In this document: positions 1,310 to 23,425 of the stretch, in pieces
Layout of the letters: each line of letters opens with the position of its first letter
How positions within the stretch are numbered: the stretch's first letter is position 1
Translations under genes and position numbers: made by a program
Notes under the pieces: model-generated
Told to the model about the DNA's origin: nothing
What the model saw: only the letters and a program-made list of their open reading frames with translations
Databases searched by the model: none
NCBI GenBank assembly: GCA_027604185.1
Contig: JADGKB010000158.1
Coordinates: 1 to 23,859 of the forward strand
DNA: 23,859 nt
From: Boothiomyces macroporosus
Lineage: Eukaryota > Chytridiomycota > Chytridiomycetes > Rhizophydiales > Terramycetaceae
Reading direction: 5' to 3'

Positions 1310-3155
1310 ATGAATGCATTAAAAATGGTACTTGGAACTGATTTTATTTGCATGCAAAAATCTTTACATTTTTTCAATAGAAAAATGGCGATACAAAAAT
1401 ATATACCGCTCCTGACAGGGATAGCGCTTCCAGTAGCAACTTTTATTAACTTGCAATCGATTACAGTGCCAGTAGACTTGTACAAACATAATTCAAAAGT
1501 GATCTGGTTATTATCTTTAATTTCACTACTGTTTGGATTCAGCAGCACCATTGCCCTGTTTGTGAGGATGCTGGAAAAAAAGATCAAGTGGATGACAAGG
1601 TATATAATTCATAATACAGAATAATTATGATGGGATCGCTGGGACAAGGAATGGGATGTATCCTAACTCTGTTGTTCTTCCACTTTACTTTGAAATCTGG
1701 GGAATCCAAATATACTGAAGCGATAGTTTACAATTTATTAGCAGCCAGTTTATCTTTTTTTAGTTGGGGATTAACAGTGTACCACCATCACTATAATGTT
1801 GCACACGATCAATTATATTCCTGGACGCTGTATGAACTATCACTTGAACAACGCCAATTTATCTTGCTGACGATCGCTTCGATATTTTACATGTCAGTGG
1901 TTTCTGCTTTCTATGGATTTCTGGAAGATTGGGATTTTGAAATTGCTCTGTATTGGTGTATATGTACTTTTACCACTATCGGATTTGGTGATTACGCTCC
2001 CAAGAATATATGGGGAATGGCTTTGTTGCCTCCTGTTACTTTTGTTGGAATTGGGCTAGTTGGTTCAAATATGTGGTCTCTTCGTAACGTGCTATTGGAA
2101 TTCCTGGCAATCCAACTAGCATCACAATATTCAAAAGTTTATGTCGACTCCCAGCTTAAAGTTACCAATCCAAGAAGGAAACCTATCAATAGAAGAACGT
2201 CAGAACCAGTGTTTGACCGTTACCACAACCAAAGAGATTTGGAAAATAGTCAACAAGATTTAAATGTACCAACTAGTAGCAGAATGCCTATTCCTAAACC
2301 TGCCAGAAAACCAAACATTTCCAGGTCACCAGGGCAGTTCAAGTTTGGTGTGATGCACCAATCTCCTGTTGATGAAAATGTTCCTTTATTGGAAGAGCAT
2401 GAAGATGGTAGCTTAAGTTAACGATAGACTCAGTTGATTTATCTCCTCCAGAACCAAATTCAGTCAACCCTGTTGACAATGAAGCAAATCCAAAAACGCT
2501 TCGAATTACAAGAAACAAGCGACTGCCTTCAGTGGTAATTGTCGGAAATGATGCGCTTAAAAGATCCCACATTGTCCAAACTACCCAGTCTACCATTTCC
2601 AGGCAAATAGTCTATTCTTTAATCTTGGTAATCTCCAACATTCTGGTTTCAGGAATGATATTTTCATATCTAGAGGATTGGTCTATTTTGGAAGGATTCT
2701 ACTTTTCATATTGCGCATTCATGACTATTGGATATGGCGATTATACGCTTAAAACTTATCTTGCCAGATCTATATTTATTTGGTTTATTTTCTTTGCGAT
2801 CGGCAGCTCCACCTATCTCATCGCAATGCTATCTGAATTGGCAGTTGATCAATGGACAGTCACTACAAACTATATTGCCAAGCGGGTTGACCGATACGAA
2901 GTAAAAGCCAAACTAAAGAAACAATTCAACAAAAAAGGTAAAGAAAAGCAAGAGAGCGAGGAAGAGGATGCGCTACCGAAATCAGATGCTATTGATATCC
3001 ACCCAGAATCACTTGGCGAGTACGGCGCGAGACAGTTTATCCCGGATAGAGCATCATACGATGGTGCTATGCAACGGCAATTCGATCGTCCAGCAGCTTA
3101 CTCTGTAAGTCTCACTCGCTCAGAAGAAACCACTCGTCCTAACCCCTTCCTATAA
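1310..3155 (+). CDS. TOK-type two-pore outward-rectifier K+ channel
   Basis: Predicted 601-residue membrane channel moving K+ across the plasma membrane, of the fungal TOK architecture (four N-terminal helices, then two pore units). Selectivity filters are visible as TIGFGD (about residues 216-221) and TIGYGD (about 459-464), each after an EDW-containing pore-helix lead. A long polar loop of about 150 residues separates the pores, and the C-terminal tail is charged and coiled-coil-like. Exons are 1310-1599, 1620-2407 and 2428-3155. The introns are 20 nt each (GTATATAATTCATAATACAG and GTAGCTTAAGTTAACGATAG), and removing them restores one frame. The start is uncertain: ATG 1385, just before the first hydrophobic stretch, is an alternative. 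No closer subfamily is claimed. Confidence 0.88.
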
Positions 3156-3189
3156 TATATTTTAATTTTCGCGTTGGTAATTTTTTCAA

Positions 3190-3712
3190 ATGCAATCTCT
3201 AGTCCCGCTTGGAGGTGAAGCTTGTCCATATTTTGCGCCATTTTTAGGTCTAGCTGGAGCAGCTTGTGCAATGATATTTTCAGCTGTTGGAGCTGCATAC
3301 GGAACAGCGAAATCAGGAATCGGTATTGCAGGATTAGGTCAAGTTAAACCGGAATTGTAATACGAGTTAATTTAGAATGATGAAGAGTTTGATTCCTGTT
3401 GTTATGGCTGGTATTATTGGTGTTTATGGGTTGGTTATAGCGGTACTGATTGCAAATAATATGGACCCTACCAAAGGGTACAGTCTGTTTGCTGGGTGTG
3501 TACATTTGGCGTCTGGATTATCAGTTGGATTCAGTGGAATTGCCGGAGGATATGCCATTGGGTTGGTTGGAGATGCTGGTGTCAGATCATATATATATCA
3601 ACCAAAAATGTTTGTAGGAATGGTATTAATATTAATTTTCGCTGAAGTTTTGGGATTGTATGGAATGATTATCGGATTGATTCTCAACACTAAAGCAACA
3701 AGCGCTTGTTGA
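3190..3712 (+). CDS. V-type H+-ATPase proteolipid subunit c (or c')
   Basis: 167-residue four-helix proteolipid of the V-ATPase Vo rotor, which carries protons across the vacuolar or endosomal membrane. The N-terminal [14 protein letters not shown], the [15 protein letters not shown] block and the fourth helix [13 protein letters not shown] are diagnostic. The proton-carrying Glu is about E146. Exons are 3190-3356 and 3376-3712, split by a 19-nt intron (GTAATACGAGTTAATTTAG), without which the protein would end at KPEL. Length matches the family (about 160). The sequence mixes Vma3-like and Vma11-like residues, so c versus c' is left open. It ends 81 bp from the convergent CTNNBL1 gene. Confidence 0.93.
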
Positions 3713-3793
3713 TCAAATAAACATTTTAAGTTTAAAGTCTTGCACCGATACTTATTTATTCGTTCGATTCAATCGTTGATATCATGTCAGTTA

Positions 3794-5353
3794 TCAATTG
3801 CTTTTCCTTTCCTTCATCCAGATTTTCACAGTACACTTAATTAGCCTCATTTTACCTTGCAAGACATTGATTACATTGTCCAACGTCTCGTTTATAGTAC
3901 CAAGCAGTTCGGGAAGCACCAATTTGATCTCTGGTGATTTTGTAATCAAATACAGGAGTATTACATCAACCATTTGTAATGTAAACAGCCCCGCTTCTAA
4001 AAGGTCAAAGTATTCTTCATCCTCTTCTCCAGCATCAACCATCTGGATTTTTAGTTTGTATTGATCGTGTAATAGAATCAATCTATGTAGTTTTTCATAA
4101 TCATTCTCGATGAATTTATAAATCAAACGCTGTGCGGTTGCTGGTGATAGACTGCGAAACAGAGATGCAATAATGGATACGAGGTGCTCTTCTTGGTCTT
4201 TCTGGGAGTAATCCGGGTAGAGTTTCTTGTATTTTGTGTCTGATTTCTTCATGAATGCTGAAAATATTGATCCTAGTCCCGATAATTCAACCAATTGTTC
4301 CGCAGCTTCGTTAGAATCACCAAGCATCAAGTGAGATAATGTTTTGAATGCCCTCATCTTGGCCATCTTTTTTTGTCTATCTTAAACCAGAGTTACTTTA
4401 TCATTATCAGCATTAGCTGAATACCTTCGCCTTCCATGAACAATTTCTTGTGCGCTTCATGATGCAAAATTAAGCAGAGAATATCAAAGCAGTTTTCCAT
4501 TAATTCAACTTCTTCCCCTTCTCCAGGATCTTTCTTGATATAGTTGGCCAATACCTGAAGTAATATTTCAATTCCGTCCTTCTCTACTAGTTTTGTCCTA
4601 TTTGCTTCAGACCTCGTTACTAATATGGAAAGCAACTCTGAGCAATACTGGCGAACAGAGTCAAACTCTTTTCTGCTGATTCGCTCCAGTAACCAATCCA
4701 ACAGCTTTCCAGTATTAAAGATTCTAGCATCCAGATCAGGATTGACAGAGATAAAGTTTTCAAAAACAGACAGTGTATTGAAGATCCCTTTGTTATCATA
4801 AAGTACCTTGCTTATCGTCCAGCCTGGTGTCGTCTAACCTTCCCAGATTAGCAACCAGCAAATCTAAAGCATCCAACTGAACTAATTTTTCCACCAATAG
4901 ACCAACTCCTTCTTCATCTTCTGCCAAATCTTCATCTACAAGTTCATTCAATAACTCTACACACTGAATCGAAATATCTGTATTTTCATGTGACAAAAGG
5001 GATAAAATATTTGGTAGGCAATCCAAATCCAAAAGTGCCGGATATAATTCTGGTGCTGATGAAATTGAAGTCAAATTCTTGATTGCTTCAACCAAATCTG
5101 CTTCCGATTCGATATATTTCATTGGATCGCCAGCATACTTGCTACGCTGAATGGTATTCTTTTGTAACGCCTTGTTGAATGCGGAAACTAATTTCTTCAA
5201 GGTTGGTAAATCTATCACTGCAGCGACTTTTTCTCCTTGGTCGATTAGTGCCGAGAGTTGATGGTCCGCGGTTGTTATCTTTGCGGATCCGCTATCCAAT
5301 TTCACTTTTTTATTTGCCTGTTCTGGCTGCTTGAAAATATCGTCAATATTCAT
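3794..5353 (-). CDS. CTNNBL1: Beta-catenin-like protein 1 (spliceosome-associated)
   Basis: 506-residue homologue of CTNNBL1, an armadillo-like helical protein known to associate with the Prp19/CDC5L spliceosomal complex in the nucleus. Matching landmarks are an N-terminal Lys-rich segment (NKKVKL), DPMKYIESEADL, SHENTDISIQCVELLNEL, YCSELLSIL, the EGEGIQLMLIMIK block, RAFKTLSHLMLG, and a C-terminal EEYFDLLEAGLFTLQ region. Exons are 5353-4807, 4787-4397 and 4376-3794. The introns are 19 nt (GTACTTTATGATAACAAAG, ending AAG) and 20 nt (GTAACTCTGGTTTAAGATAG). Human CTNNBL1 is slightly longer (563), mostly in its acidic N-terminus. This splicing-associated gene itself carries ultra-short introns. 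Confidence 0.93.
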
Positions 5354-5395
5354 TTTCTTTTGATCTCAATTTTCACTTTTGAAAAAAACGTGACT

Positions 5396-5695: not shown

Positions 5696-5868
5696 TCAAA
5701 TCAAAAATTAACTCGATTAGCACATGTTAACATCTTTAAAATTTCCTTGGTTACCAAATAATACGATTTGTGAATGACAATCAAATCCTCGAGTTACAAG
5801 CTTCCACTCTTATTTCATGGGATCCATTGAATTAGGAAGTAATTTTTTTACAAAAATTAAAAGGTTAG

Positions 5869-7675
5869 ATGCTGGGGTTATTAATTCACTCCGCAAATGC
5901 CGGACCGTTGGGGTCGACCATCAAGTTCACTGGATCAGCAATTTGTGCACCACTCTGGGGTCAATGTAACTAGTATTAATTTAGGTGGTGGAGTAACTTG
6001 GACTGGTCCAACCTGCTGTGCATCTGGATCGTTTTGCTCAGCAGGAAATCCCGTCAATCCTTGGTATTCTCAATGTATTCCGGGTACCGCTCCTGCCACT
6101 ACTAGTGATGCAGGTAATGGGAACCCAACGACTACTACTACTTCTACAGTTCCTACATCGGGAAGCTGCGTAGGTGCGCCATTGGCCCCTTACTCTCAAT
6201 GTGGAGGATTTGGATATGTTGGTAAATAGAGGCTCAATATAGGTAGTAATTGCTGCGCGTCATTCAGTGGTGTAACTTATGCCTGTCAAGGGGGATACTG
6301 GTGGATGAGCTGCACTCCTTCTGGTAACCAACCACCAGCAACTACCACTACCAACATTGTAGTACCTGTTACAACCACCACCAATGTTGTAGTACCTGCC
6401 ACAACCACTACTCGAGCAGCCACCACTACCAATCCTGTTGTTCCTACTACAACTGCTAACGTTCCTTCAACCACCACCAGCAATAGTGCTACTCCAACTG
6501 GGTGTGTCGGTGCTCCTCTTGCTGAATGGGCTCAATGTTCTGGAATAGGCTATACAGGAAGCACTTGCTGTTCCTCTGGTCTTGTTTGTGTGGTATCATC
6601 TCAATGGTGGGGTTCATGTCAAAAAGCACCTCCTACAACAGCTGCTTCTACAACTGTTTCTGCATCTACTACAAAGGTTACGTCAACTACTACACCAGCT
6701 TCCGCTACTACTACAAAAGTAACCACCTCCTCAGCATCGCCAACCTCCACTCACTTTCCGATGCATCCTCCACCTGCAAGAGTATTTGCTCCGTATTTGG
6801 ATGTAACCAAGAGTACCATATCTGTCTCTGATATGCAAAATGCTAGAACAAACTGGGTTATTTTATCATTTATCGTTGCTGGATCAAACAACCAGCCTAC
6901 CTGGGCATCACAGTATGACATTACTTCCAGTTTTTACATGGATGCAATTAACAGTATCCGTGCAAATGGAAATGACATTGCAATTGCTTTTGGTGGTTAT
7001 GACTTTCAAGAACTTGCTTTGGTTATCACTGATGTAAAACAACTACAGGCTGCTTACCAATCAGTAATTGACAGATATCAAGTAAGCTGGATTGATTTCG
7101 ATATTGAATCTACCTCTATTTACGATACAGCAGCAAATGATCGCCGTGCACAAGCAATTGCAGGGCTTCAACAAGCTAATCCAGGTCTTACTGTATCATT
7201 TACTGTTTCTGTAATTCCTTCTGGAATGGTTTCATCTGGTATTTCTTGGATAACCAACCTGAAATCTCGAGGTGTCCGTATCGACATCCTGAACATTTTA
7301 GCGATGGATTACGGGGTTCCTGGAGAAAATGGTGCAACTGGAATGGGTGGATATGCTATCCAAGCTGCCCAAAGTACATACGCTCAATTGCAACAGATCG
7401 GATATACCAGTACTAAACTGGGAATCACACCAATGATTGGTGCTAATGATGTCAGTGGTGAATTCTTTACCTTGGCCAATGCTCAACAAGTTGTTGATTT
7501 TGCTCTTGCAAATTCATACATTCAAATGCTGGCTTTCTGGTCACTTCATCGTGATTCAGCTTGTAGTGGACAATGTGCTGACTACACTAATTATGCAGCT
7601 GTGGTTCCATTATACGATTCTTCCAGAATTGCTCAAAATGCCTTTGATTTTAGTCACATTTTCAACGCTTTTTAG
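5869..7675 (+). CDS. Secreted GH18 chitinase with three CBM1 modules
   Basis: 588-residue modular enzyme predicted to hydrolyse chitin outside the cell. Order: short hydrophobic N-terminus; CBM1 module 1 (about 27-63, WGQCGGVTWTGPTCC); module 2 (94-135); module 3 (199-237); Thr/Ser-rich linkers; GH18 barrel (about 290-588). The GH18 active-site strand reads SWIDFDIE with E400 as the predicted proton donor; the first Asp of the usual DxxDxDxE is Ser. AMDYG and the later Trp strand (AFWSLHRD) are also present, as in the PF-ChiA-like/ChiD-like branch. Exons are 5869-5965, 5985-6221 and 6243-7675, with introns of 19 and 21 nt. Joining exon 1 restores the first CBM1. The start at 5869 gives a weak signal peptide (MLGLLIHSANA), so the true N-terminus is uncertain. 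Confidence 0.88.
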
Positions 7676-7719
7676 TATATTCAATTTGCAACTGAAATAA
7701 ATATATTTTACAACGATAA

Positions 7720-8658: not shown

Positions 8659-8711
8659 GCTGGCAGCAATTTTATCTTGAATTTATACAATTTTTTATCT
8701 CATTTTGATGA

Positions 8712-9303: not shown

Positions 9304-9983
9304 TTATTTCAATAGTGGACGGAAAAGCCGTCTGTAAAGGAATAGGGATCCATCTCTCTGCAGCCAATACAAAATCAATACTTTTGGCAGGTAGTATGGA
9401 ACGTGTTTGGAAATATACTTTGCTTGATGGTCCAAAAGTACAAACAATCCAAAGCAAGACCCTAAGATTAACTACTATTACAATAAGTCAACCATCTCTC
9501 ATCATCGTTCAACTCTGGTGTTTCAACTGCCTTCAAAGATCTATAAACCGGATACAAAATTCCATAAAGCTGAGTAGTGAGTAACGGATTCCTCATGGAC
9601 AATTTCACTATCGCTATACTAGATATAATAGTAAACAGCAAAAAGGCAGCCGGAGGTGATAAAGTTGTTCGTTTCTGTATTTGCTGCAACAAGTAATGGG
9701 AGGATAAATATACTTCTGATTCATGTAGAAATGGAACTGTGCTTTCTAACCGCTTTAGGAGAAACTTTAGGAATGGAAAGCGTTGTTGTATTGATTGTAG
9801 GATATCCCAGTATCGTCTAGTTAGAGGTGCGACTTGGTATTCTTGGTAGTCCTCTTCCTTTTCTTCCCTGTCTTTCTTTTCTGGTATCGGTATTTCGCTT
9901 AGGTTCTCGGCGGTGAGGAATAGCTGGTTTTCTATGCTCATTTCTTCTGTAAAGGGAATGTCGACAGATTCGTTTGAAAGCAT
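9304..9983 (-). CDS. REEP/Yop1/HVA22 (TB2/DP1) family ER-shaping protein
   Basis: 219-residue homologue of the REEP/Yop1 family, which uses hairpin membrane insertions to curve tubular ER. The diagnostic core is YGILYPVYRSLKAVETPELN, then DDERWLTYW, then YYLPKVLILYWLQRDGSLFL and YRRLFRPLL. Exons are 9983-9482 and 9461-9304. A 20-nt intron (GTAATAGTAGTTAATCTTAG) splits the Trp codon of LTYW; without removal the frame stops at once. The N-terminal segment of about 90 acidic residues is long compared with yeast Yop1 (180 residues in total) and is unrecognised. It lies 59 bp downstream of the first GH16 gene on the same strand. Confidence 0.9.
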
Positions 9984-10042: not shown

Positions 10043-11200
10043 TTATAACATTGCAACAAAAGCAGCAGCAGCCAAAACAGCGAATGAGGATTGGGATGCG
10101 AAAGCGGATGATGGTGAAGAAGTTCCTGCAGCAGGAGTGGTAGCAACAGTAGCTGCTGGAGCACCGGAAACGGTAAGAGCAGGCAGTTGAGTAGAGTTGT
10201 TGTTGGTTGGAGTGGTAGAGTTGGAGCTTGCAGATGATCCACCTGGAGCTGCTCCGGCTGGAATCTTTCCACCAGTTGCAACTTCAGTTGGTTGACCTTT
10301 TTGGGTTGGGGCAGCTTTAACGTTTTGTGGAATCAATGGCCATTGTGGGACTGGGTTATCGTTATCATCATAACATTGCACTGTGATGGACTTGTAAATA
10401 GCAGAAGCAGAAGTAGTGCCTGCTGGCCAAGCTGGAGCACCACCAGCCCAAACGTTGGTCTTGTCAGACCAAAGAGAAAATTGGATTTTCATTGCTCTGT
10501 CAGGGAAGAATGGAACTCCATGAGTATTTGGAGAGTTCAGTGCAGCTGGGTCGTTCTTGTTGTATGTTCTGACGACATTTCCGTCCAATGACCAGGTGAT
10601 AGAGTTGTGTTTCCAGTCAAAGGTGTAAGTGTGGAATTGGTCAATTCCATTTGGTACATTGTGGATGCCACCACGAGCACCAAGTTCTTGGAACCCACGG
10701 AAGAATACATTGCTGTTGAATTGGTTTGGAGTTTTACCCAAAATTTCAACGTCGATTTCATCACCGCCCTGAGGGTTGGCTTTGCTTAAATCGAATCTAG
10801 AGTCTGGCAATTGTGGTCCCATACCGATAAAAGTAGTAACAATACCAGAGATGGCAGGCGCTTTAAGAGTAGCGGAAACCTTTGCATATCTAATGAAACG
10901 GGTTGAAGAAACTCTAGGGGCAAGCGGATTGTCGTTTCCGTTAGCAGTAATTAAAAGCTCCAAACCACCACCAGCAGCTTGTTTGACATTTTTTTGGTTG
11001 TAATCAATGGTAAAGTCGTATCTTCCCAAATCAATTCCAATGTTTGATTGAACTGGAATCAACGAATCCAAGGCAAATAGTCTGTTCATGTCAGAGAAAT
11101 CATAAGTGGTGGACAAGCATTCTCCAACGTATTGAGGATCGTTAGTTGGGTCAGCTGCGAGAACTAATGAGGCTAAAACAAGTGCTGTAAATTTATTCAT
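10043..11200 (-). CDS. GH16 Crh-like wall glycosidase/transglycosylase, copy 1
   Basis: 385-residue secreted enzyme of glycoside hydrolase family 16, resembling fungal Crh/Utr proteins that cross-link chitin to beta-glucan. Signal peptide about 1-16 (MNKFTALVLASLVLA). The catalytic strand is DEIDVE, with E148 as nucleophile, D150 as helper and E152 as acid/base. A Ser/Thr/Pro/Ala-rich stalk follows from about residue 310, then a hydrophobic end (FAVLAAAAFVAML), consistent with GPI attachment. Intronless. It is a tandem paralogue of the gene at 11356-12495, with long stretches nearly identical even in DNA. Substrate is inferred from family only. Confidence 0.92.
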   Translation of the reverse strand: MNKFTALVLASLVLAADPTNDPQYVGECLSTTYDFSDMNRLFALDSLIPVQSNIGIDLGRYDFTIDYNQKNVKQAAGGGLELLITANGNDNPLAPRVSSTRFIRYAKVSATLKAPAISGIVTTFIGMGPQLPDSRFDLSKANPQGGDEIDVEILGKTPNQFNSNVFFRGFQELGARGGIHNVPNGIDQFHTYTFDWKHNSITWSLDGNVVRTYNKNDPAALNSPNTHGVPFFPDRAMKIQFSLWSDKTNVWAGGAPAWPAGTTSASAIYKSITVQCYDDNDNPVPQWPLIPQNVKAAPTQKGQPTEVATGGKIPAGAAPGGSSASSNSTTPTNNNSTQLPALTVSGAPAATVATTPAAGTSSPSSAFASQSSFAVLAAAAFVAML

Positions 11201-11355: not shown

Positions 11356-12495
11356 TTACAAAATGTTTACTAGGAGGAGAGCAAAGAGCCCGCTTGAAAT
11401 TTGCAAAGCGAGTGAAGAACTTGCTTGTGCAGTTGGGTAGGAGCTTGCGCTAGAACCGGAAGCGCCAGTTGCAGAAGGATTGGCTGCAGCATTGGTTGTG
11501 GCTGGAGCAATGCTTTGTCCACCCACAGCAGCTTGTGGTGGAATAGTACCATTAACTGCAATAGTAGGCTGCCCTGGAGCAGTTGGTGTGTAGTCTGGGT
11601 TTTGTGAGTTGAGCGGCCATTTTGGAACTGGGTTCATGTTGTCGTCATAACATTGAATTTCGATATCCTTGTAAACAGCGTAAGCAGAGTCAGATCCAGC
11701 AGGCCAAGCTGGAGCACCACCTGCCCAAGTGTTGGTTTTATCAGACCATAGAGAAAATTGAACCTTCATGGCTCTGTCAGGGAAGAATGGAATTCCATGA
11801 GTATTTGGAGAGTTCAGTGCAGTTGGGTCAGTCTTGGTGTAAGTACGGACTGCAACATCATCGATAAGCCATGTGATTTTATCTTTTTGATAATCAATCG
11901 TGTATTTGTGGAATTCAGCTACACCACCTTTGACAGGATGATACCCACCGCGAGGGCCGAGTTCTTGGAAACCACGGAAGAATACATTGGTTTCAATGTT
12001 CATAGGGTCTTTACCCAGGATTTCCCAATCAATTTCATCACCACCGTCAGGGTTCGCCTTGCTCAAGTCAAATCGAGAGTCTGGCAATTGAGGTCCCATA
12101 CCAATGAATGTAGTAACAATTCCAGAGATTGCTGGCGCCTTCAATGTAACAGAGATTTTTCCATAGTGAATAAATCTGGTGGTTGAAACTCTTGGGGCGC
12201 TTGGATTCTGATCGCCGTTCTTTTGGATCGTCAATTGGAGGCCTTCACTAGTAACGTTCACCAAATGAGTGTTGTAGTCAACGGTAAAGTCGTATCTGCC
12301 AACATCTAGTCCAGGAATGTTGGCAAGGGCAGGAATGTTTTCCAATCCAAATATTCTAGACATGTCTGTAAGATTATATTTGGTGGACAAGCAGGAGCCA
12401 GTGTAACGTGGATCATCAGAAGGTCCAGACGAAGTGCTGTTTTGGGCAGAGACCAACGACAACAAAATAAGGGCGAATTGCTTTGCAGTGTACAT
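11356..12495 (-). CDS. GH16 Crh-like wall glycosidase/transglycosylase, copy 2
   Basis: 379-residue intronless paralogue of the downstream GH16 gene. Signal peptide about 1-17 (MYTAKQFALILLSLVSA). The catalytic strand is DEIDWE (E154, D156, E158), closer to the usual Crh DEIDWE form than copy 1, which has V at the fifth position. A Ser/Ala-rich stalk and hydrophobic C-terminus (LALQISSGLFALLLVNIL) suggest GPI anchoring. Several N-glycosylation sequons occur (NSTS, NLTD, NVTS, NGTI). The stop lies 155 bp from the ATG of copy 1, so each gene probably has its own promoter. Confidence 0.92.
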   Translation of the reverse strand: MYTAKQFALILLSLVSAQNSTSSGPSDDPRYTGSCLSTKYNLTDMSRIFGLENIPALANIPGLDVGRYDFTVDYNTHLVNVTSEGLQLTIQKNGDQNPSAPRVSTTRFIHYGKISVTLKAPAISGIVTTFIGMGPQLPDSRFDLSKANPDGGDEIDWEILGKDPMNIETNVFFRGFQELGPRGGYHPVKGGVAEFHKYTIDYQKDKITWLIDDVAVRTYTKTDPTALNSPNTHGIPFFPDRAMKVQFSLWSDKTNTWAGGAPAWPAGSDSAYAVYKDIEIQCYDDNMNPVPKWPLNSQNPDYTPTAPGQPTIAVNGTIPPQAAVGGQSIAPATTNAAANPSATGASGSSASSYPTAQASSSLALQISSGLFALLLVNIL

Positions 12496-12861: not shown

Positions 12862-14623
12862 ATGACTATGATTGAAGAATTTCTTTCTATTACCAATCGC
12901 CTTTCAGTGCCTAGCAAGATACTGGCATCTTTGGGCGTAATTGTGGTAGGAACTGTCCTATCAACAGTTTGGGCAGTTGAAAGCAGGGTCTCAAAGCTAA
13001 AGAAGCTAAATCGAAATGTAGAGATGACTATCAAGCGACTGTATCTTCCCTTCCCCATGGCAATGATTGTAATCCTTGTTAATCTCAGTTCAAATGGGGT
13101 GGAATATTTTCAATGCCATTTGGGTGGTTGTACGATCCGAAAATGAAGAGATATCCAGACTCGTACTCCAAATTAATCTAGTGGCGATAGTGTATTGTTC
13201 ATTGTTACACCTAACGCAATAGTACTTCAGATTGCGGACAGCAGTTTATGCCAGGAAGTGTTTGATCGCAAGCAAGACTTTGTAAAGTAACCCAATATTC
13301 ACACAGACCAACTCATTTCTACAAAATTCTATCCGTATTCGGTGAGAATGTTGTTACACTGGAAGGAAGGGAGTGGAAACGACGTACCCAATGTTAACGT
13401 AGATCGTAAAATTACCTCACCGCAATTCAGCGAAAAGAACAACCTTCTAGTCCACAAAGAAACAATTCAAGTAGTCTCTCAGATGATGGAACATTGGGAG
13501 AGCACTGGCGAGATTAATGGAGAGATTGATATCACAAAGAACATGATGAATGTCGCACTTCATATAATTTCATCTGCAGCATTTGGTAAACAGTTGGACT
13601 GGGTTGAAGATGCAACAAAAATACAAGATGGACATAAGCGAACCTTCAAACAGAATCTTCAATTTGTGGTTCACGAATTAATCAACTACATCGGAACGCC
13701 AAAATTCTTGTTTTACCTCCCTATCCCTAAACTCAAAGAACTTGAAAGTAACTTTGATGGTAACTAGTTTCTAAGTAGAATTCCACCAATATCTTGTAGA
13801 ACTGTACCAAGATGCCAAGAAGCCTGAAAATTTAAACAAGAGCAATTTAATGTCTGCATTGGTAAAAGGATCCATGAATGAAAACGAATTCAGTTCACTC
13901 TCTGATAGAGAATTGATTGGTAATCAGTTCATCTTTTTGTTTGCAGGGTATCTATTATTGACATAGGCATGAGACTACAGCCGGCACTCTGAATTTTGCC
14001 TTTACTCTATTGGCAAATAATCCAAAGATGCAAGATCGTTTGTATCAGGAAATAACTGCCACTTGCGGAAACGAATTGCCTGATTATAAGCACTTGAATG
14101 AAGTACCGTATACATTTGTAATCTAATCTAACTGTAGGCAGTTATCAATGAAACACTAAGGATGTATCCTCCGGTTGTATCTATCCCTAAAATCACCGAT
14201 GGCGAACAGAAGCTGGGAAGATATGTTTTGCCAGATAAAACTGACATTAGCATTCATTCACATGGATTGCAATTTAATCCAAAGTATTGGGGTCCAGATC
14301 CTCTCAAATTTAGGCCAGAAAGATGGTTTGCAGACCAAGAATGTGCAGTATCTGCATCCAAAGTAAAGGAGAGGCTATCCGAGTACACTTCGATAAAATC
14401 ATTCTTCAAGTACGACAAATGGGCATTCGTACCATTCTCTGAAGGAGTAAGATCCTGCTTGGGGAGGAGATTTGCAGAAGTAGAAATGCTGGTTGTTTTA
14501 CTAATGATATGCCAAAGATATGAAATCTGCGCGCCTAAAGGAGAGGACGCATTGAAATCGTCTAACTTTATTACTTTGAAAACCTCAGAGCCAGTATCGC
14601 TAATTTTTAAAAAGAGAAAATAA
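12862..14623 (+). CDS. Cytochrome P450, copy 1 (8 exons)
   Basis: 541-residue microsomal-type P450 monooxygenase with one N-terminal membrane anchor (ILASLGVIVVGTVL). Motifs: I-helix AGHETT (329-334), K-helix E385-T-L-R388, FRPERW, and heme loop FSEGVRSCLG with Cys487 as heme ligand. Exons: 12862-13068, 13089-13162, 13182-13286, 13307-13383, 13403-13759, 13779-13947, 13967-14117 and 14138-14623. All seven introns are 19 or 20 nt. Unspliced, the gene looks shattered; spliced, it aligns along its length with the P450 at 17953-19611. Three of its introns (13069, 13163, 13287) have no counterpart in that paralogue. Substrate and CYP family are not assignable from sequence alone. Confidence 0.9.
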
Positions 14624-15310: not shown

Positions 15311-15706
15311 ATGTCACAGAACACTGCACTGCCTCCAGGATACATTTCTCAATGGGATCCTAATCACCAGAGATACTACTTTGTCGATACTAGAACAGGA
15401 ATTTCAAGTTGGGACGATCCACGATATCCCCATTTCACTCCCCCAATGACAGCAGAGAGCCAACCACCTCCTTATTCGGCGGTAGATAAACATCAACCTT
15501 CGCAACCTAGTGTACCTTATTCGCAACTGAATAATAATTATCTAGGAAATGCGGTTGCTCCTGATGCAGCTGGTCTTGCCTTGGGTGGTTTAGGCGGTCT
15601 ATTTGTTGGAGAAGGCATCGCTAACCTTGGTGGATATAATCGATACAACAGATTCGGTCCTTTCCATCACTTTCACCACCACCATTGTGGCCACTGGCGA
15701 TTTTAA
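15311..15706 (+). CDS. WW-domain, glycine-zipper, His-rich protein, copy 2
   Basis: 131-residue paralogue of the preceding gene, 121 bp downstream. The WW domain (LPPGYISQWDPNHQRYYF, SSWDDPR) is nearly the same as in copy 1. The linker is shorter, with one PPPY. The glycine-zipper (AAGLALGGLGGLFVGEG) is kept. The tail has fewer His and ends HCGHWRF. Intronless. The conserved modular order with divergent linkers suggests selection on the WW and zipper parts. The next gene starts 38 bp later. Confidence 0.82.
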   Translation: MSQNTALPPGYISQWDPNHQRYYFVDTRTGISSWDDPRYPHFTPPMTAESQPPPYSAVDKHQPSQPSVPYSQLNNNYLGNAVAPDAAGLALGGLGGLFVGEGIANLGGYNRYNRFGPFHHFHHHHCGHWRF

Positions 15707-16455: not shown

Positions 16456-17603
16456 ATGTCAGTAACAACTACCCAGACCAGCACTGTATATACCAGCTCT
16501 ATATTATCGACTGTTACGGACACTATATCCACTGTCCCAACGCTTACTGTGGAAAGCGTGCGAGGCAATTCAGAAAACCAAAGTCAAAGCTCAGACATGG
16601 TGTTTGTAATTTCAGTATCTGTCGTAGCGGGAATATTTCTACTGATGCTCTTGTATTTTACTTGGTACTATTTTTATAGAAAGAACAGAATCAATGTAAT
16701 CAAATTTAACTGTAGCCATTAAGCGATGAAGAATTGGGTAGATACTTAGGACAGAAAAAAGAAACGATTAGTGATACTGGGACACTGGCAAAGCTGGTTG
16801 AAAAAAATCCATCTTCACCCATCTTGGCTGCAAATGAGTTGTCAAGAGCAACTTCCAAAGGCTCAACTTCAAGCTTATCGAGGGGTATATCAAAGAACTC
16901 TGGTGCCATTCCAAACTCGCTTGCAACATACACAGCCAGACCTGAAAATGTCCGCAAAGCGTTCACCATGACTCCTAGAAAGAACAGTGTTGAACCACCA
17001 CCTTATGCGCGCGCAACGTTAGCTCACAAGAGAAGTTCAGATTTCATCCCAAGAAATACGTTGGAATACCCTTACACAAAACGCAATTCAGATACTGTCC
17101 TACAAACCCAATACGGTTCATTTACTACAGCCTCCTTCCAAAAACTGGATCGTTACAACACAATTGGTGAGAGAAGACCCACTAAATTGAAAACCAGCAT
17201 TTCATTTGATTCTACGACTACCAGTGTAGTAAATCAAGATGCTACCCCAAAGAAAAGACGTTCAGCTGATTTTACTTACTCTCCAATAACAGGTGTAAAC
17301 GCGGTGCCAACAGTTGCTATACCTTCGTTTGATGGAGTGATGGAAAATTCAAAACTACGAAACGTCAACAAAAGCACAACAGAGTTCAGCTATTCCCCAA
17401 AGACTGGAGTTGGACAGCAAATTCCAGAAGTTCCTGCATACCAACCTGATTTACAACATTTAGAAAAACTCCGTCGAGAAGCTGCTATTGAAAAACGCAA
17501 CACTGTGAGCGACTTTCAATTTTCACCCAGCACTGGAGTTGAAAGTTTAGCTTACAAAGTACCAGAATTTAACATGCCATCATTAAACCGCAAAAAGCAA
17601 TAA
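16456..17603 (+). CDS. Single-pass membrane protein with 'SPxTGV' cytoplasmic repeats
   Basis: 375-residue protein of unknown function. Residues 1-46 are Thr/Ser-rich and probably external and O-glycosylated. One transmembrane helix (about 48-72) follows, then Arg/Lys, so the remaining 300 residues should be cytoplasmic. This is a sensor-like layout similar to fungal wall-stress proteins, without sequence proof. The tail has a PPPY motif (174-177) and three copies of a pattern around SADFTYSPITGV (264), TTEFSYSPKTGV (302) and VSDFQFSPSTGV (344), each followed by a VP or IP segment. Exons are 16456-16695 and 16716-17603, with a 20-nt intron (GTAATCAAATTTAACTGTAG) just after the helix. No family recognised. 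Confidence 0.78.
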
Positions 17604-17952: not shown

Positions 17953-17956
17953 ATGA
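17855..17956 (+). CDS. Possible upstream ORF overlapping the P450 start (ATGA)
   Basis: 33-codon frame from ATG 17855 (MVKADMNVAQLWNAVKDIGS, ending IFEK). Its TGA overlaps the P450 copy 2 ATG in the arrangement ATGA at 17953-17956. If both are on one mRNA, it could control P450 translation by termination-reinitiation. Whether it is translated cannot be seen here. Confidence 0.3.
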   Translation: MVKADMNVAQLWNAVKDIGSLYQNKFAARIFEK

Positions 17957-19611
17957 TTTCCAGGTTACTAATCTCGTCTGGAGTTTTACTTGCAACTGCG
18001 GCGATTATTTGCATTGTTTCGGTAAACAGAAAGGTAGCCCTAGTGAAAAAATTGAATCCGGATGCAAGATTGGATATCAGAAAAGTGTATTTACCATTTC
18101 AGCTTATATTTGAAAGAGCGGAAATTAGACTTCCATCATTCTTGACCACCCCATTTGACTTTATGTACAATAACAAGATGGATAGATATCGCGGAGAAGA
18201 TCGGATAACATTCATTGTAGCGCCTGATCTAATTGCTGCGGTTATTGCAGATGCCAAGTTCATTGAAGAAGCGTATGAAAAAAAGAATGAATTTGTTAAA
18301 CCGATCAAATATTACAATGTATTACAGATATACGGAGAAAACATATTGACGCTGGATGGAAAGGCTTGGAAAAGACGTACAAGGGATTTAATCTAGATCG
18401 TAAATTTGTTTCTCCGCAGTTCTCGGAACGAACTAATATACTGGTACACCAAGAAGCTGTTCGCAGTTGTCAGCAGATGATTGATCATTGGGAAGCGAGT
18501 GGAGAAATTGATGGGTTGATCAATATCACGGTTGCCATGTTTTATTATGCATTAGGAGTTGTTTCAGCAGCAAGTTTTGGGACTAGATTGAACTGGGTCG
18601 ATGATCCAAATGACAAGCCGGAAGGATTCAACCTCACTTTGAAACAGAGCTTGACATATGTCACTCACCATCTCTTTCAATACATTTTGACTCCAAACAT
18701 TGCTTACTATCTCCCATTTGAAGGATTGCAGACCATGAAGAGAAATTTTGAAGGTACATGGATTTAATCTCTGAATTTCACTTGTATTTAAAACAATTTG
18801 TTGCTTCTGCTAAACTACCAGAAAACAAAGAGAAAAGCAACTTGTTATCGTCAATGGTAAGGGCTTGCGAAGGCGATAGTGAAACGTTCACTGATGAAGA
18901 GTTGATTGGCAATATCTTTATATTCTTGTTTGCTGGGTAACTATTTTTGACACAGGCATGAAACTTCTGCTGGAACACTGAATTATATCTTGACTCTACT
19001 TGCACTTCACCCGCATGTGCAAGAAAGGTTGTATCAGGAAGTGAAATTGACTTGCGGAGACCAACCGCCAGAATACAAGCACATCAACCAAGTACCATAC
19101 TGTTTCGTAATTGATATTAATTCAGGCAATCATCAATGAGAGTCTTCGATTGTATCCAGCTGTAGTTGCTGTCCCAAAACTAGCGGTGACAAACGCAACA
19201 ATAGGCAAGTATGTTATCCCGGAAAACACCGACTTGTTTATTCACACCCATGGCGTTCAGCACCATGAAAAGTATTGGGGCAAAGACTATGAAGAGTTCA
19301 AACCAGAAAGATGGTTTGAAGACCAAGAATGCGCTCAATCTGCCGAGAAAGTGTATGAGAAAATCCAGGCAGACACACCTATTCGCGCATTCTACAAATT
19401 CGAAAAGTACGCTTTTACTCCGTTTTCAGATGGCCCTAGAGCATGTATTGGCCGTAGATTTTCCGAAGTAGAGATGCTGGTTGCGTTGATTATGCTTTCG
19501 CAAAGATACAAGATTACTATCCCACCCGGACCGGATCCGCTTGTTTCTTGCGCAAAGATTACCTATAAAACAACCAAAGATGTGCTCTTGAAATTTACAA
19601 TTCGCCAATAA
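17953..19611 (+). CDS. Cytochrome P450, copy 2 (5 exons)
   Basis: 526-residue paralogue of the P450 at 12862-14623 with an N-terminal anchor (LLISSGVLLATAAIICIV). Motifs: AGHETS in helix I (A314 on), E370-S-L-R373, FKPERW, and heme loop FSDGPRACIG with Cys472. Exons: 17953-18376, 18397-18753, 18774-18936, 18956-19106 and 19126-19611. Exons 2, 4 and 5 have exactly the same lengths as their counterparts in copy 1 (357, 151, 486). The second intron (18754-18773) ends in TG, not AG; if it is not spliced the gene is broken. Exon 1 is continuous where copy 1 has three introns. Only 23 bp separate its stop from the aminoacylase ATG. Confidence 0.86.
18754..18773 (+). other. Candidate non-canonical GT-TG intron (20 nt)
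   Basis: GTACATGGATTTAATCTCTG interrupts the P450 frame at exactly the position where copy 1 has a 19-nt GT-AG intron. Removing these 20 bases restores the frame (NFEG then FHLYLKQF, against NFDG then FHQYLVEL in copy 1). The branch-like TTAAT is in the usual place. No AG occurs near the junction, so the acceptor would be TG. A splice-site mutation or base-call error is the alternative. Confidence 0.6.
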
Positions 19612-19634
19612 AAACTTGTCATTTTTTCCATTTA

Positions 19635-20971
19635 ATGTCCCCACAATCCAAGAAAGCAAAAGTTGAAGATATCGCAGTGACCAGATTCCGGGAATATCTG
19701 AGGATCAAAACAGTTCAACCAACTCCGGACTACGCTGGATGCACTGCATTCCTCACCAAGTATGCCAAGGAGCTCAATCTTGAATGCAAAGTTGTGGAGG
19801 TAAATTCGCTTTGATCCAGCTTGTTAAAGGAAAGCCTTTGGTCATAATGACCTGGAAAGGAACTGATCCATCCCAAAAATCATTAATATTGAACAGTCAT
19901 ACAGATGTAGTTCCAGTATCTGAGGAGCACTGGGATAATCCGCCATTCGAAGCCGTTAAGTTGGACAATGGAGACATTGTCGCTAGAGGTGCTCAGGATA
20001 TGAAGTGCGTTGGCATCTGGTACATGGAAGCCATTCGCAAACTTCAACAACAAAACAAGAAATTGAAGAGGACTTTACACTTGACTTGGTACTTGCTCTT
20101 GACGTAGGGTTCCAGATGAAGAAATCGGAGGTCACGACGGAATGATGGTGTTTGTAAAGAGCAAGGAATTCAAAGAGTTGAATGCTGGCTTTGCTTTGGA
20201 TGAAGGTAGATGGAATTAATGTAGGACTTGCCAATGAAAAGAATGCGTTCAAATTGTACTATGGGGAAAGATCTCCGTGGTGGTTGACTTTGATTGCCAA
20301 GGGCAACGCAGGTAGATAGTACCTTAGCTTTAGGACATGGGAGTAAATTCATTGAACCGTCCGCTACTTATAGATTGTTGAAGACTTTGGACAAATTCCT
20401 TGCTTTCAGAGGTAAGAATTTTTGACATTAGATTCTGAACAGAAAAGGTTGGAATTTGAATTGTCTCACGATGGAAAACCAATAACTCTTGGCGATGTAC
20501 TTTATATTAATATAGGTTACTACTACCAATGTAACAATTTTAAAAGCTGGAGTTCAACATAACGTTGTCCACGAAGAAGCTCAGGCTGGGGTTGACATTA
20601 GAATTGCGCCAACTGTCAACCATAAGGAATTTGAACAGATGGTCAAGGAATGGTGTGCTGAATATGATGTAGAAATGAAAACTGTTCAAAAGTTTGATGG
20701 AGCTCCATCCACCATTCTCAGCGAGCACAAGGAATGGCAAGTCGTGCAGTCTGTTGCCAAGAAGCACAAGGTTGATATTGAACCGGAAATCTTCCCGGCA
20801 GCAACCGACTCTAGATTCTTGAGGCAAATTGGAGTGCCTGCGTTTGGTATTTCAGCAATCAAAAACACGCCGGTATTGCTTCATGACCACAACGAATATT
20901 TGAATGAAAATGTCTTTCTTGAAGGCGTTTCTTTCTATGTGGACCTGATTTCTGGAATGGCGAATCTCTAG
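19635..20971 (+). CDS. ACY1: Aminoacylase-1 (M20 metallopeptidase family)
   Basis: 405-residue zinc enzyme that hydrolyses N-acyl-L-amino acids in the cytosol. All key residues of the family are in place: H82 and D84 (NSHTDVVP), bridging D114 (GAQDMK), catalytic E149 and ligand E150 (VPDEE), E177 (LDEG), H208 of the dimer contact (AGHGSKF) and H377 (LLHDH). Length matches human ACY1 (408). Exons: 19635-19799, 19820-20088, 20108-20205, 20225-20311, 20334-20411, 20432-20496 and 20516-20971. The six introns are 20, 19, 19, 22, 20 and 19 nt. The 22-nt intron has an internal AG, but only the full length restores AGHGS. Confidence 0.95.
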
Positions 20972-21048
20972 GACAGCGAATAAAAACTTTGACAGTGCCT
21001 CTTTTTGTAACATGGATTTTTTTTCTCAAAAAGCCAAGTTAAAAAAAT

Positions 21049-22350
21049 ATGTTGGAGTGGTATCCAGAGGCAGTAAGTGAGGAGGCTCTAAATGGATTGA
21101 AAAAGTACAAATATTCTGCAATCGACTTGGTAAATATAATTTAATATAGTCGCCTATTTCCAGGTATATTCTCCAGCCGTACTGGACTTGGGCAGCAACA
21201 CTCTTTCCAATATGGATGGCGTAAGACTGTACTAACCCAGACCCAACTTAATCACACTGTTAGGGTTTGTATTTGTGCTGTTTAATTTCTTTTTGCTCTT
21301 GGTGTACACTCCAGACTTGTATACCCCAGGACCATCTTGGATTTATTTCAGTTTTGGAATAGGGTTGTGGTTGTACTCTACATTTGACAATGTTGACGGA
21401 AAGCAAGCTAGAAGAACTGGATCATCTTCACCTCTTGGAGAATTATTTGATCAGTAATTGCTTTATAATGTAGTGGTGTTGATGCTCTGAACTGTACTAC
21501 TGGAGCGCTTCTGAACGCTGCAGGGCTATGTTTAGGACTGGGTGATTGGTCATTATTATCCGTTGGAATTGCCGCGACTGCCTTCTTTTTCTCTACTTGG
21601 GAGACTTACTACACTGGAACATTGTTTTTGGGCTATATCAACGGACCAACTGAAGGACTACTCATTTCTATTTCTTCTCTATTCATTTCTGGTATTTTCG
21701 GACCACAAGTATGGACTACTGCTGTTTCACAAGTATTGCCATTCCTTAAACCATTACTTGGAGAATTATCATTTGCTCATTTTGCAGTTGGAAATATGTT
21801 GTTGTTGCTCATTTTCACACAAATTCCAGTCAGTATTTTAAGAGTTATTGAAGTTTGCGGCAAAAAGAATATTTCAGTTACAAGTGCACTGTTCACCACT
21901 GTGCCGTATCTTGTAATGGCTAGTTCTGCATTCTTTTGGGCAACTGCTGGAACTCATGTTGCACCAGACAACACCATTGTATTTGCTTTAGCGTGGGGTT
22001 TCGCTATTGGACGCATCAATGCACTGATTATATTGAATCATGTTACTCATATTGAATATCCAAGTTACAACTTTCTCGTTGTTCCATTCGCGTTTGGTGC
22101 TTTTGTTGCAAGAGCTCCGCAACTTTTTGGAATGTAATTTATTTTCTAACGTAGTGCCCCAATATTTAACGCTCACACTGAATCTGTTTATATTTGGATA
22201 ACATTCTTGTTTATTACCATTGAATACATACTATGGGCAGTTAAAGTGGTTGAACAATTCTGTGACCATTTGAATATCAAATGCTTTACTATCCCGTACA
22301 AGCATTTGCTAAAGAGTGCTTCGCCAGTTAGAGGAAGACTTGAAGATTAA
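21049..22350 (+). CDS. CDP-choline/ethanolamine:diacylglycerol phosphotransferase
   Basis: 406-residue multi-pass ER or Golgi enzyme making phosphatidylcholine or phosphatidylethanolamine from CDP-alcohol and diacylglycerol (last step of the Kennedy pathway). The full CDP-alcohol transferase motif is present: D100-x2-D103-G104-x2-A107-R108-x8-G117-x3-D121-x3-D125, the last part completed across an intron (LFDHGVD). Upstream [14 protein letters not shown] and the N-terminal [17 protein letters not shown] also match. Exons: 21049-21129, 21150-21220, 21241-21453, 21474-22133 and 22155-22350, with introns of 20, 20, 20 and 21 nt. The choice between choline and ethanolamine cannot be made from motifs. 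It ends 12 bp from the convergent membrane-protein gene. Confidence 0.94.
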
Positions 22351-22362
22351 AATAAATTGAAT

Positions 22363-23425
22363 TTATGGATCTAATTGCACGTCAGTTTTCACAGACACTG
22401 ATTGTAGCACTTGCGTTTTTCCGTTTGTGTAGAATGGATTCCAAGCCTTTTCATTCGATGATTTCTCATGAATCTTTTTCAGGAAATTACTAAAGAACGG
22501 CACCAATGGGTAAACGTTCTGGGTACTTCCGTTGTTAATAAACGCCAGTACTGGTGTAACTGCAATCAGCAAAAAGGCAAAGGTGCCTACCATTAATCCC
22601 GCTTACCATAATAAACATTAATTTCTGATGGGAATATCCATATTAATAGTTCAAACCCTTTAATGAATCCTACAACTGGTATAGATAACCCCGCTTGCAA
22701 TACTTGAAAGACAATGTAACCTGGAATAGAGCATCTAGTAGCAGACTCCATCATCATTTTAAAGTCTACTTTTAATTGCCCATAAGTTTGAATAGATATA
22801 TATAAGCCGTACAGTGTATCTAGAATAGAAAGAATGTATACAGTTATAACTAGCATTAAACTAAACCACCTGTATATGATGTATTGTATGGATGTATTAA
22901 CCCACCATCTACGGCAAAAGTAGAAACGTTCCTGCAATAGATTTCTATCCAATAGAATATTACACTAGCAACACCTGGTAATATTCCAAGCGAGTAAAAC
23001 CGCAACGGATGGTTTTGGATGAATCGGAGATACTTTCCCTTTCCCATTAATATAACTCGAAGAGCAACTATCTGCAATGTTCCAGACACGTAAATTGGAA
23101 GACATACCAACAAAAATAACGTTGGATTGAAATAATGTATCCAAGATGATTGCGTGATTGATAGGTTTGGTGCGTCAAACTGTAACCCGCCAGCACTCCA
23201 ATTATAATAAAGGAGCTCATGCTTGGATGCTATTCCAATAATTATAAATCCGGTTGTACAAAGTAGTTGTAGAACTGCACTGTACTGCATTGGTTGAAAC
23301 GTGTTCAGACGATATGCTCTGGTTAATCCGACTGCTAAGCAGATAATTAAAAATAGTCCAGTATAATCTAGTAATAAAACAAATAAAACGAAATAATTGG
23401 ATAGCTTTTGAAGAGGGTTTGGCAT
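22363..23425 (-). CDS. Unrecognised seven-helix membrane protein
   Basis: 340-residue protein with about seven hydrophobic helices: LFLIICLAVGL, AVLQLLCTTGFIIIGIA, TLFLLVCLPIYVSGTLQIVA, LGILPGVASVIFYWIEIY, VITVYILSILDTLYGLYI, a proline-containing segment before FELLIWIF, and TFAFLLIAVTPVLAF. A Cys/Asn-rich loop and a hydrophilic C-terminus (KKIHEKSSNEKAWN) follow a receptor-like layout, but I see no known receptor motif. Exons: 23425-22870, 22849-22607 and 22586-22363. Intron 2 is 20 nt (GTAAGCGGGATTAATGGTAG). Intron 1 is probably 20 nt but starts GTGG (GTGGTTTAGTTTAATGCTAG); a 17-nt alternative at the same acceptor is also in frame. Confidence 0.75.

What the first reader, a model, noticed from the sequence alone, without database searches (positions are those of the whole stretch)
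1600..22869. Ultra-short spliceosomal introns (19-22 nt) throughout a fungal-like genome segment
Seen: 32 introns inferred in 11 genes, with lengths 19 (12), 20 (17), 21 (2) and 22 (1). Each one restores a frame; for the recognised families (V-ATPase c, CTNNBL1, ACY1, CPT/EPT, REEP, P450, CBM1) the joined residues match conserved positions. Nearly all start GTA and have a YTRAY-like branch (TTAAC, CTAAC, TTGAC, TTAAT) with only 4-5 nt to the end. Known: comparable sizes are reported in chlorarachniophyte nucleomorphs (18-21 nt) and Stentor (15-16 nt); I know of no fungus with such a uniform 19-20 nt set. Inference: the spliceosome here recognises a nearly fixed-length module.
Basis: partly seen in the sequence, partly recalled or inferred. 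Interest (0 to 1): 0.95.

Follow-up and report, generated by a model that had tools for sequence, protein, structure and literature searches.

The report
Chytrid fungus with tiny 19-22-nucleotide introns
The genes of this chytrid fungus are interrupted by introns of only 19-22 bases, among the shortest known, yet the splicing parts that were looked for are present and human-like, so it offers a way to find out how small an intron an ordinary splicing machine can remove.

Summary
Confirmed and extended. The window is a contig of Boothiomyces macroporosus (Chytridiomycota): its aminoacylase, with six predicted introns removed, equals that species' database protein over 405 aa. In 200 kb of the same genome, a scan with no length or branch preference peaks at 19-22 nt, not 19-20 (15, 27, 19, 14). 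A gene finder with a flat length prior finds 179 such introns against 0 decoys, and no excess at 24-150 nt. The introns follow two tight rulers: presumed branch A at position 14-16 in 252 of 287, then mostly 5-7 nt to the end. The splicing factors searched for are all present: U1, U2, U6, Prp8, SF1, both U2AF subunits, Slu7, Prp18, Isy1, and Cwc25 with the glycine plug reported lost in Stentor. Most likely this is ordinary U2-type splicing at an extreme geometry, with spacing as a recognition signal. Similar introns are known in nucleomorphs, heterotrich ciliates and mikrocytids; my ten capped literature searches listed no report for a fungus. No RNA evidence was available.

The parts
1600..1619 (+). 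20-nt intron, TOK1-like potassium channel gene
   Evidence: frame and motif only; one search placed it in a spurious model
2408..2427 (+). 20-nt intron, TOK1-like gene
   Evidence: frame and motif
3357..3375 (+). 19-nt intron, V-ATPase subunit c
   Evidence: joined protein 97.7 bits on ATP-synt_C, second exon alone 72.8, first exon none
4788..4806 (-). 19-nt intron, CTNNBL1
   Evidence: pieces on either side match profile 5-155 and 152-287; joined 487 bits
4377..4396 (-). 20-nt intron, CTNNBL1
   Evidence: pieces match profile 152-287 and 287-474; flat-prior run had called a 44-nt intron here
3836..3855 (-). 20-nt intron, CTNNBL1
   Evidence: at the end of the Pfam match, so frame and motif
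5966..5984 (+). 19-nt intron inside the first CBM1 domain
   Evidence: joining restores WGQCGG...GPTCC
6222..6242 (+). 21-nt intron inside the second CBM1 domain
   Evidence: joining restores YSQCGGFGYVGSNCC
9462..9481 (-). 20-nt intron, REEP/TB2-DP1-HVA22 gene
   Evidence: joined protein matches PF03134 1-77 of 77, 60 bits; first exon alone none
13069..13088 (+). 20-nt intron, P450a
13163..13181 (+). 19-nt intron, P450a
   Evidence: paralogue alignment
13287..13306 (+). 20-nt intron, P450a
   Evidence: paralogue alignment without gap
13384..13402 (+). 19-nt intron, P450a
   Evidence: shared position with P450b
13760..13778 (+). 19-nt intron, P450a
   Evidence: shared position with P450b
13948..13966 (+). 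19-nt intron, P450a
   Evidence: shared position with P450b
14118..14137 (+). 20-nt intron, P450a
   Evidence: shared position with P450b
16696..16715 (+). 20-nt intron, membrane-protein gene 16456-17603
   Evidence: frame and motif only
18377..18396 (+). 20-nt intron, P450b
   Evidence: shared position with P450a
18754..18773 (+). possible 20-nt GT-TG intron, P450b
   Evidence: sits where P450a has a GT-AG intron
18937..18955 (+). 19-nt intron, P450b
   Evidence: shared position with P450a
19107..19125 (+). 19-nt intron, P450b
   Evidence: shared position with P450a
19800..19819 (+). 20-nt intron, ACY1 aminoacylase
   Evidence: best of all rivals tested; database protein identical
20089..20107 (+). 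19-nt intron, ACY1
20206..20224 (+). 19-nt intron, ACY1
20312..20333 (+). 22-nt intron, ACY1
20412..20431 (+). 20-nt intron, ACY1
20497..20515 (+). 19-nt intron, ACY1
21130..21149 (+). 20-nt intron, CPT/EPT gene
   Evidence: frame and motif
21221..21240 (+). 20-nt intron, CPT/EPT gene
   Evidence: just upstream of the CDP-OH_P_transf match of the joined protein
21454..21473 (+). 20-nt intron, CPT/EPT gene
   Evidence: inside the CDP-OH_P_transf match of the joined protein, 43.3 bits; downstream exon alone none
22134..22154 (+). 21-nt intron, CPT/EPT gene
   Evidence: frame and motif
22587..22606 (-). 20-nt intron, membrane-protein gene
   Evidence: frame and motif only
22850..22869 (-). 20-nt intron (GTG start), membrane-protein gene
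   Evidence: frame and motif only

Best explanation
These are ordinary U2-type spliceosomal introns, shrunk to near the smallest size an unreduced spliceosome can handle. Seen in sequence: a GTA 5' splice site, a YTAAY branch motif whose presumed A lies at position 14-16, mostly 5-7 nt from there to AG, canonical U1, U2 and U6, and the conserved splicing proteins searched for. Inferred: two short rulers (5' splice site to branch A, branch A to AG) supply specificity that the weak 5' splice site (no preference for G at +5) and the missing polypyrimidine tract do not. Inferred also: with U6 pairing near +4 to +6 and U2 around -5 to +1 of the branch A, only about 2-4 nt link the two duplexes, so U1 and U2 probably cannot occupy one intron together in the usual way; U1 hands over before U2 is stably bound, or assembly begins across exons. 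SF1, U2AF65 and U2AF35 would then act in turn or on other sites.
For: Length peak at 19-22 nt without length or branch preference; 179 introns against 0 decoys at 19-22 nt, and 119 against 224 at 24-150 nt; 277 against 14. With GT and a branch motif in place, 71 of 79 frame-restoring segments end AG. Branch A at 14-16 in 252 of 287 when sought along the whole intron. Spacing cuts false sites from 877 to 9. ACY1 competition 6 of 6. U2 with GTAGTA, U6 with ACAGAGA, U1 with ACTTACCT. Prp8 2329 aa after removal of six 19-22-nt introns, SF1 (21), U2AF35, U2AF65, Slu7, Prp18 (20), Cwc25, Isy1 (50). P450 paralogues keep 19-20 nt at four shared positions though the intron sequences differ. Intron-like modules rarer in sense coding sequence than after synonymous shuffling at the loosest threshold (33 against 48.8; 0 of 60 as low), not in antisense.
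Against: No RNA evidence. The gene finder was trained on introns, so searches are not independent of its motifs, and the flat-prior run got only 17 of 32 window introns right. At stricter thresholds the depletion in sense exons is not significant (13, 4, 0 against 15.0, 6.8, 2.5). U1 scores 68.8, just under its cut-off of 69.5, and U2AF65, read unspliced, 230.7 under a cut-off of 310.3. U4, U5, SF3B1, Yju2 and most other factors were not searched. The sample comes from contigs 1-6 only. Lengths vary between stretches more than chance.
Confidence: 0.88

Rival explanations
1. The machine is specially adapted to tiny introns, as proposed for Stentor: changed branching factors, or reliance on helpers such as SMU1/RED and SPF45/RBM17 in place of U2AF.
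For: The Isy1 N-terminus could not be modelled with the usual start and may be extended or diverged; Stentor is reported to have a non-conserved Isy1 N-terminus (PMC9505925 section 2.6). In human cells SMU1/RED and RBM17 serve short introns (PMC6692369, passages; PMC8363638, abstract).
Against: Cwc25 keeps the plug that Stentor lost: the first 14 residues equal those of the CWC25 homologue in the PDB. Prp8 is full length, and U2AF35 and U2AF65 are both present. SMU1, RED and RBM17 were not searched.
Confidence: 0.25
2. The segments are not spliced but skipped in another way: translational bypassing, DNA elimination, or self-splicing or enzyme-cut RNA.
For: Their uniform length recalls such elements, and no transcript was seen.
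Against: GT-AG ends, a branch motif that fits U2, and intact U1, U2, U6 and splicing proteins. The database protein of the species is the joined one. Bypassing and elimination elements would not carry U2-type signals.
Confidence: 0.03
3. Only part of the genome is like this; elsewhere introns are longer and more varied.
For: Only 200 kb of 15.2 Mb, from the six longest contigs, plus the window and some factor loci were seen. Introns over 150 nt and introns in untranslated regions were not tested. The share of 21-22 nt introns is uneven.
Against: No excess over decoys at 24-150 nt in 20 stretches. The same sizes in Prp8 on contig 58 and U2AF35 on contig 1.
Confidence: 0.07
4. The pattern is an artefact of frame errors in assembly or of a reader joining open frames.
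For: Any two open frames can be joined by some GT-AG pair; the flat-prior run called 11 longer ones in the window.
Against: Decoy donors show no peak; homology chooses the tiny intron in 6 of 6; frame errors do not carry GTA, YTAAY and AG at fixed spacing.
Confidence: 0.01

Closest known systems
Heterotrich ciliate introns (Stentor coeruleus, 15-16 nt)
   Same: uniform tiny GT-AG introns, GTA start, branch A at nearly fixed position, 5-nt tail, near-complete spliceosome (PMC9505925, sections read)
   Different: Stentor: branch A at 10 or 11, weak branch consensus, 8806 introns in 18% of genes, Cwc25 plug lost. Here: A at 14-16, clear YTAAY, denser introns, plug kept
Mikrocytid introns (16-17 nt)
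   Same: narrow size range at the shortest extreme (PMC10245619, passages)
   Different: parasites with 224 introns and a highly reduced spliceosome (17-19 proteins); here the proteins searched were found, and introns are far more numerous
Chlorarachniophyte nucleomorph introns (18-21 nt)
   Same: almost the same lengths (18-21 as given in PMC10245619)
   Different: relict nucleus of an endosymbiont with some 800 introns; here the nucleus of a fungus
Paramecium introns (median 24-25 nt)
   Same: short U2-type introns in thousands, SMU1 and RBM17 kept (PMC12862383, passages)
   Different: broader, 15-100 nt
Human short introns needing SMU1/RED or SPF45/RBM17
   Same: same steric problem: short 5' splice site to branch distance, truncated pyrimidine tract
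   Different: about 50 nt is given as the minimum from 5' splice site to branch site (PMC6692369, passages); here 13-15. The helpers were not searched here

Membership tests
U2-type spliceosomal introns | GT-AG ends | tested here: met
   71 of 79 frame-restoring segments with GT and branch motif end AG; 32 of 33 window introns
U2-type spliceosomal introns | branch motif that can pair with U2 | tested here: met
   YTAAY-like motif in range in 282 of 299; U2 has GTAGTA
U2-type spliceosomal introns | major-spliceosome snRNAs in the genome | tested here: met
   U2 and U6 over cut-off, U1 0.7 bits under it; U4 and U5 not searched
U2-type spliceosomal introns | removed from RNA through a lariat | not testable with these tools
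   no RNA data; database protein equals the joined reading
Tiny-intron genomes of reduced endosymbionts and parasites | strongly reduced spliceosome | tested here: not met
   Prp8, SF1, U2AF35, U2AF65, Slu7, Prp18, Cwc25 and Isy1 all found, 8 of 8 proteins searched
Stentor-type adapted branching factors | Cwc25 glycine plug lost | tested here: not met
   MGGGDLNLKKSWHP kept; the start at MGGG was chosen by homology
Stentor-type adapted branching factors | Isy1 N-terminus not conserved | tested here: inconclusive

The most novel reading that the evidence does not exclude
An unreduced, human-like spliceosome can excise introns with only 13-15 nt from 5' splice site to branch A and 5-7 nt to the AG. 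Minimal intron size is then set by RNA geometry and assembly order, not by stripping the machine down; in this fungus U1 and U2 cannot both sit on one intron in the usual way, so assembly is cross-exon or by hand-over, and the length itself is a recognition signal.
Probability: 0.5. Interest if true: 0.9.

Novelty: new variant of a known kind. Interest (0 to 1): 0.82.

Why it matters
Tiny uniform introns were known from relict nuclei, intracellular parasites and ciliates, where loss of splicing factors or ciliate peculiarities could explain them. A fungus (free-living by recalled knowledge of the genus) with perhaps 20,000 such introns, a rough extrapolation, and conserved core splicing proteins gives a cleaner test of what sets the minimal intron, of how SF1 and U2AF work without a pyrimidine tract, and of whether the limit of about 50 nt seen in human extracts belongs to the spliceosome or to its assembly route. 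It also matters for annotation: gene finders with a usual minimum intron length would miss these introns.

Tried and rejected
Loss of second-step factors: I expected Slu7 and Prp18 to be missing, since they are dispensable in yeast when the branch-to-AG distance is short (recalled). Both are present. Loss of U2AF35: not so.

Gene-finder settings: the first overpredicted, for decoys too; the intron cost was raised. With a flat length prior the window run recovered 17 of 32 tiny introns and called 11 of 31-146 nt. The run limited to 18-23 nt called 37, of which I dropped five as chance: 1480-1499, 3105-3123, 14594-14616, 15630-15651, 21906-21923. It placed the first TOK1 intron in a spurious model and split P450b at the GT-TG place. 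Introns ending in something other than AG: 8 of 79 in sample plus window, with one TG. GC donors: 2 ending AG, near background.

Rows left out: L001-L008 were fetched by an intron-like pattern, so they were kept out of the sample; the crude count included them.

Literature: ten searches. No listed paper has a title or abstract start that reports this for a fungus. Lists were capped (20 of 32, 30 of 57 and 25 of 1,032), and the four papers holding both Boothiomyces and intron were not opened. The library holds open-licence papers only.
Full report
WHAT IT IS. The window is contig 158 of a 15,203,306-bp assembly in 216 contigs. The aminoacylase at 19635-20971, with six introns of 20, 19, 19, 22, 20 and 19 nt removed, is identical over all 405 residues to a database protein of Boothiomyces macroporosus whose longest contig is 23,859 bp, the length of the window. 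That names the organism: Chytridiomycota, Rhizophydiales, Terramycetaceae. It also shows that the deposited gene model uses the same tiny introns; whether RNA stood behind that model I could not see.

THE WINDOW. A 33rd place, in P450b at 18754-18773, has GT, TTAAT and the right length but ends TG; it sits where the paralogue has a GT-AG intron. It may be non-canonical, a damaged gene or a base error. The gene finder limited to 18-23 nt called all 32 plus five that I dropped. With a flat prior it recovered 17 of 32 and called 11 longer introns in their place or elsewhere, so motif and frame alone do not settle each junction.

HOMOLOGY TESTS. For ACY1 I built a profile from 38 of the 120 listed homologues and let the stop-free GT-AG pairs of 10-150 nt within 75 nt of each junction compete (5 to 21 rivals each, retention included). 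The tiny intron won in 6 of 6, by 7 to 59 bits; 692 bits spliced, 115 unspliced. Spliced CTNNBL1, P450a, V-ATPase c, the CBM1 protein, REEP and CPT/EPT score 487, 260.6, 97.7, 74.9, 60.0 and 43.3 bits on their Pfam families. Of nine open-frame pieces, three gave no match, two P450a exons 27.5 and 105, one V-ATPase exon 72.8, and the three CTNNBL1 exons 165, 170 and 133 on profile positions 5-155, 152-287 and 287-474, which adjoin as the tiny introns require. The two P450 paralogues share four intron positions, with different sequences but 19-20 nt each, one of these being the GT-TG case.

GENOME-WIDE. In 20 stretches of 10 kb from contigs 1-6 I looked for GTA...AG segments of 10-150 nt flanked by codon-like sequence in frames that join, with no preference for length or branch site. 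Counts at 18-23 nt: 2, 15, 27, 19, 14, 1; at other lengths from 10 to 60 nt, 0-7 each; from 61 to 150 nt, 342 in all, against 248 for CTA...AG. Controls at 19-22 nt: 4, 0, 1, 1 for CTA...AG and 3, 0, 1, 2 for GTA...A[CT]. A Viterbi gene finder with a flat prior over 12-150 nt found 43, 75, 35 and 26 introns at 19-22 nt against 0 each for a CT...AG decoy, and 119 at 24-150 nt against 224 for the decoy. Limited to 14-26 nt it called 304 introns in 118 genes, 277 of them 19-22 nt; the decoy gave 14 in that range. Scaled to the genome that is some 20,000 introns, a rough extrapolation. Density is about 2 per kb of coding sequence. Introns over 150 nt and in untranslated regions were not tested.

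THE TWO RULERS. When the branch motif is sought along the whole intron, the presumed A falls at 14-16 in 252 of 287. In one search, 282 of 299 introns of 18-23 nt have a positive-scoring branch in the allowed range. The commonest pairs of A position and tail are 15+5 (60), 14+5 (59), 15+6 (53), 14+6 (45) and 16+6 (19). The two do not clearly depend on each other (chi-square p = 0.06). The 5' splice site is weak: A 90% at +3 but G only 21% at +5, with AG preferred on the exon side. There is no room for a pyrimidine tract after the branch. Scoring motifs plus spacing, a threshold that keeps 253 of 282 introns admits 9 sites in 147 kb of spliced coding sequence; without the spacing rule (A at 9-60, tail 4-30) the matching threshold admits 877. 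This is partly circular, since the introns were called with similar motifs.

SIGN OF USE IN VIVO. Intron-like modules that would break the frame are rarer in sense coding sequence than after synonymous shuffling at the loosest threshold (33 against 48.8, sd 6.3; 0 of 60 shuffles as low), and not in antisense (50 against 48.4). At three stricter thresholds the counts are small and not significant (13, 4, 0 against 15.0, 6.8, 2.5; 20, 11 and 3 of 60 shuffles as low). I take this as suggestive only.

UNEVENNESS. Introns of 21-22 nt are 100 of 277 in the sample but 3 of 32 in the window (p = 0.0015), and the sample's stretches differ among themselves (permutation p = 0.0056). The window overstates uniformity; I do not know why.

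THE MACHINE. U2 occurs in two copies with the GTAGTA branch-binding sequence. U6 has ACAGAGA. U1 begins ATACTTACCTGG, though its score, 68.8, is just under the 69.5 cut-off. Prp8 is 2329 aa after removal of six introns of 19-22 nt and matches the hPrp8 chain over residues 6-2311, better than the chain I recall as yeast Prp8 (4571 against 3388 bits). The other proteins searched are all there: Slu7, Prp18, SF1 with its HH domain, U2AF35 with both zinc fingers and a 19-nt intron inside the first, U2AF65 with both RRMs and the UHM, Isy1 and Cwc25. Read unspliced, U2AF65 stays under its family cut-off (230.7 against 310.3). Cwc25, taken to start at its MGGG, keeps the glycine plug, identical over 14 residues to the PDB CWC25 homologue I recall as human. 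The Stentor paper reports that plug as lost and proposes that this avoids a clash with the small lariat (PMC9505925; introduction and sections 2.1, 2.4, 2.5, 2.6 read).

MECHANISM. I take these to be U2-type introns at the lower limit of an unreduced spliceosome (0.88). Human extracts need about 50 nt between 5' splice site and branch site, thought to allow simultaneous snRNP binding (PMC6692369, passages). Here it is 13-15. By established pairing (recalled), U1 or U6 would cover about +1 to +6 and U2 about 9-17, leaving 2-4 nt. Simultaneous U1 and U2 occupancy of one intron looks unlikely, hence cross-exon assembly or hand-over; this step is inference. Internal exons have a median of 210 nt (5-95%: 42-757), which neither proves nor excludes exon definition. 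In a subset of human short introns SPF45/RBM17 replaces U2AF (PMC8363638, abstract), and Paramecium keeps SMU1 and RBM17 (PMC12862383, passages). I had no genome searches left to test these here.

NOVELTY. Uniform tiny introns are known in nucleomorphs (18-21), heterotrichs (15-16) and mikrocytids (16-17) (PMC10245619, passages). A survey that analysed 644 fungal genomes names Cryptococcus, mean 63 bp, as its short example (PMC8476143, one section and passages). My ten literature searches listed no report for a fungus, with capped lists and an open-licence library. So: a new variant of a known kind, and new for fungi as far as I could see. No relative could be compared at the DNA level.

Noticed in passing
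18754-18773: Possible GT-TG intron in P450b at the place where P450a has a GT-AG intron; could be non-canonical splicing, a damaged gene or a base error.
   Followed up: partly
12862-14623 and 17953-19611: P450 paralogues share four intron positions with different intron sequences but 19-20 nt kept; P450a has three more introns than P450b.
   Followed up: partly
570-645 (+) and 1150-1224 (-): Two tRNA-Val (anticodon TAC) genes in inverted orientation.
   Followed up: no
10043-11200 and 11356-12495 (-): Two adjacent similar secreted proteins, by eye glycoside hydrolase family 16 (Crh-like); no family search was made.
   Followed up: no
L045 and L046 (contigs 49 and 100): The Cwc25 gene and its neighbour give identical models on two contigs: duplication or unmerged haplotypes.
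   Followed up: no
L029 1501-1693 and L030 1501-1691: Two U2 genes, alike in the 5' half and diverged in the 3' half.
   Followed up: no
19635-20971: The aminoacylase is labelled adenylate cyclase in several chytrid and Mortierella records, probably a confusion of gene symbols.
   Followed up: no
L048 1220-1330: Isy1 has no usual MARN-like start; the model gives an extended N-terminus after an intron with an odd tail of 8 nt.
   Followed up: partly
L009-L028: The share of 21-22 nt introns varies between 10-kb stretches more than chance (permutation p = 0.0056).
   Followed up: partly
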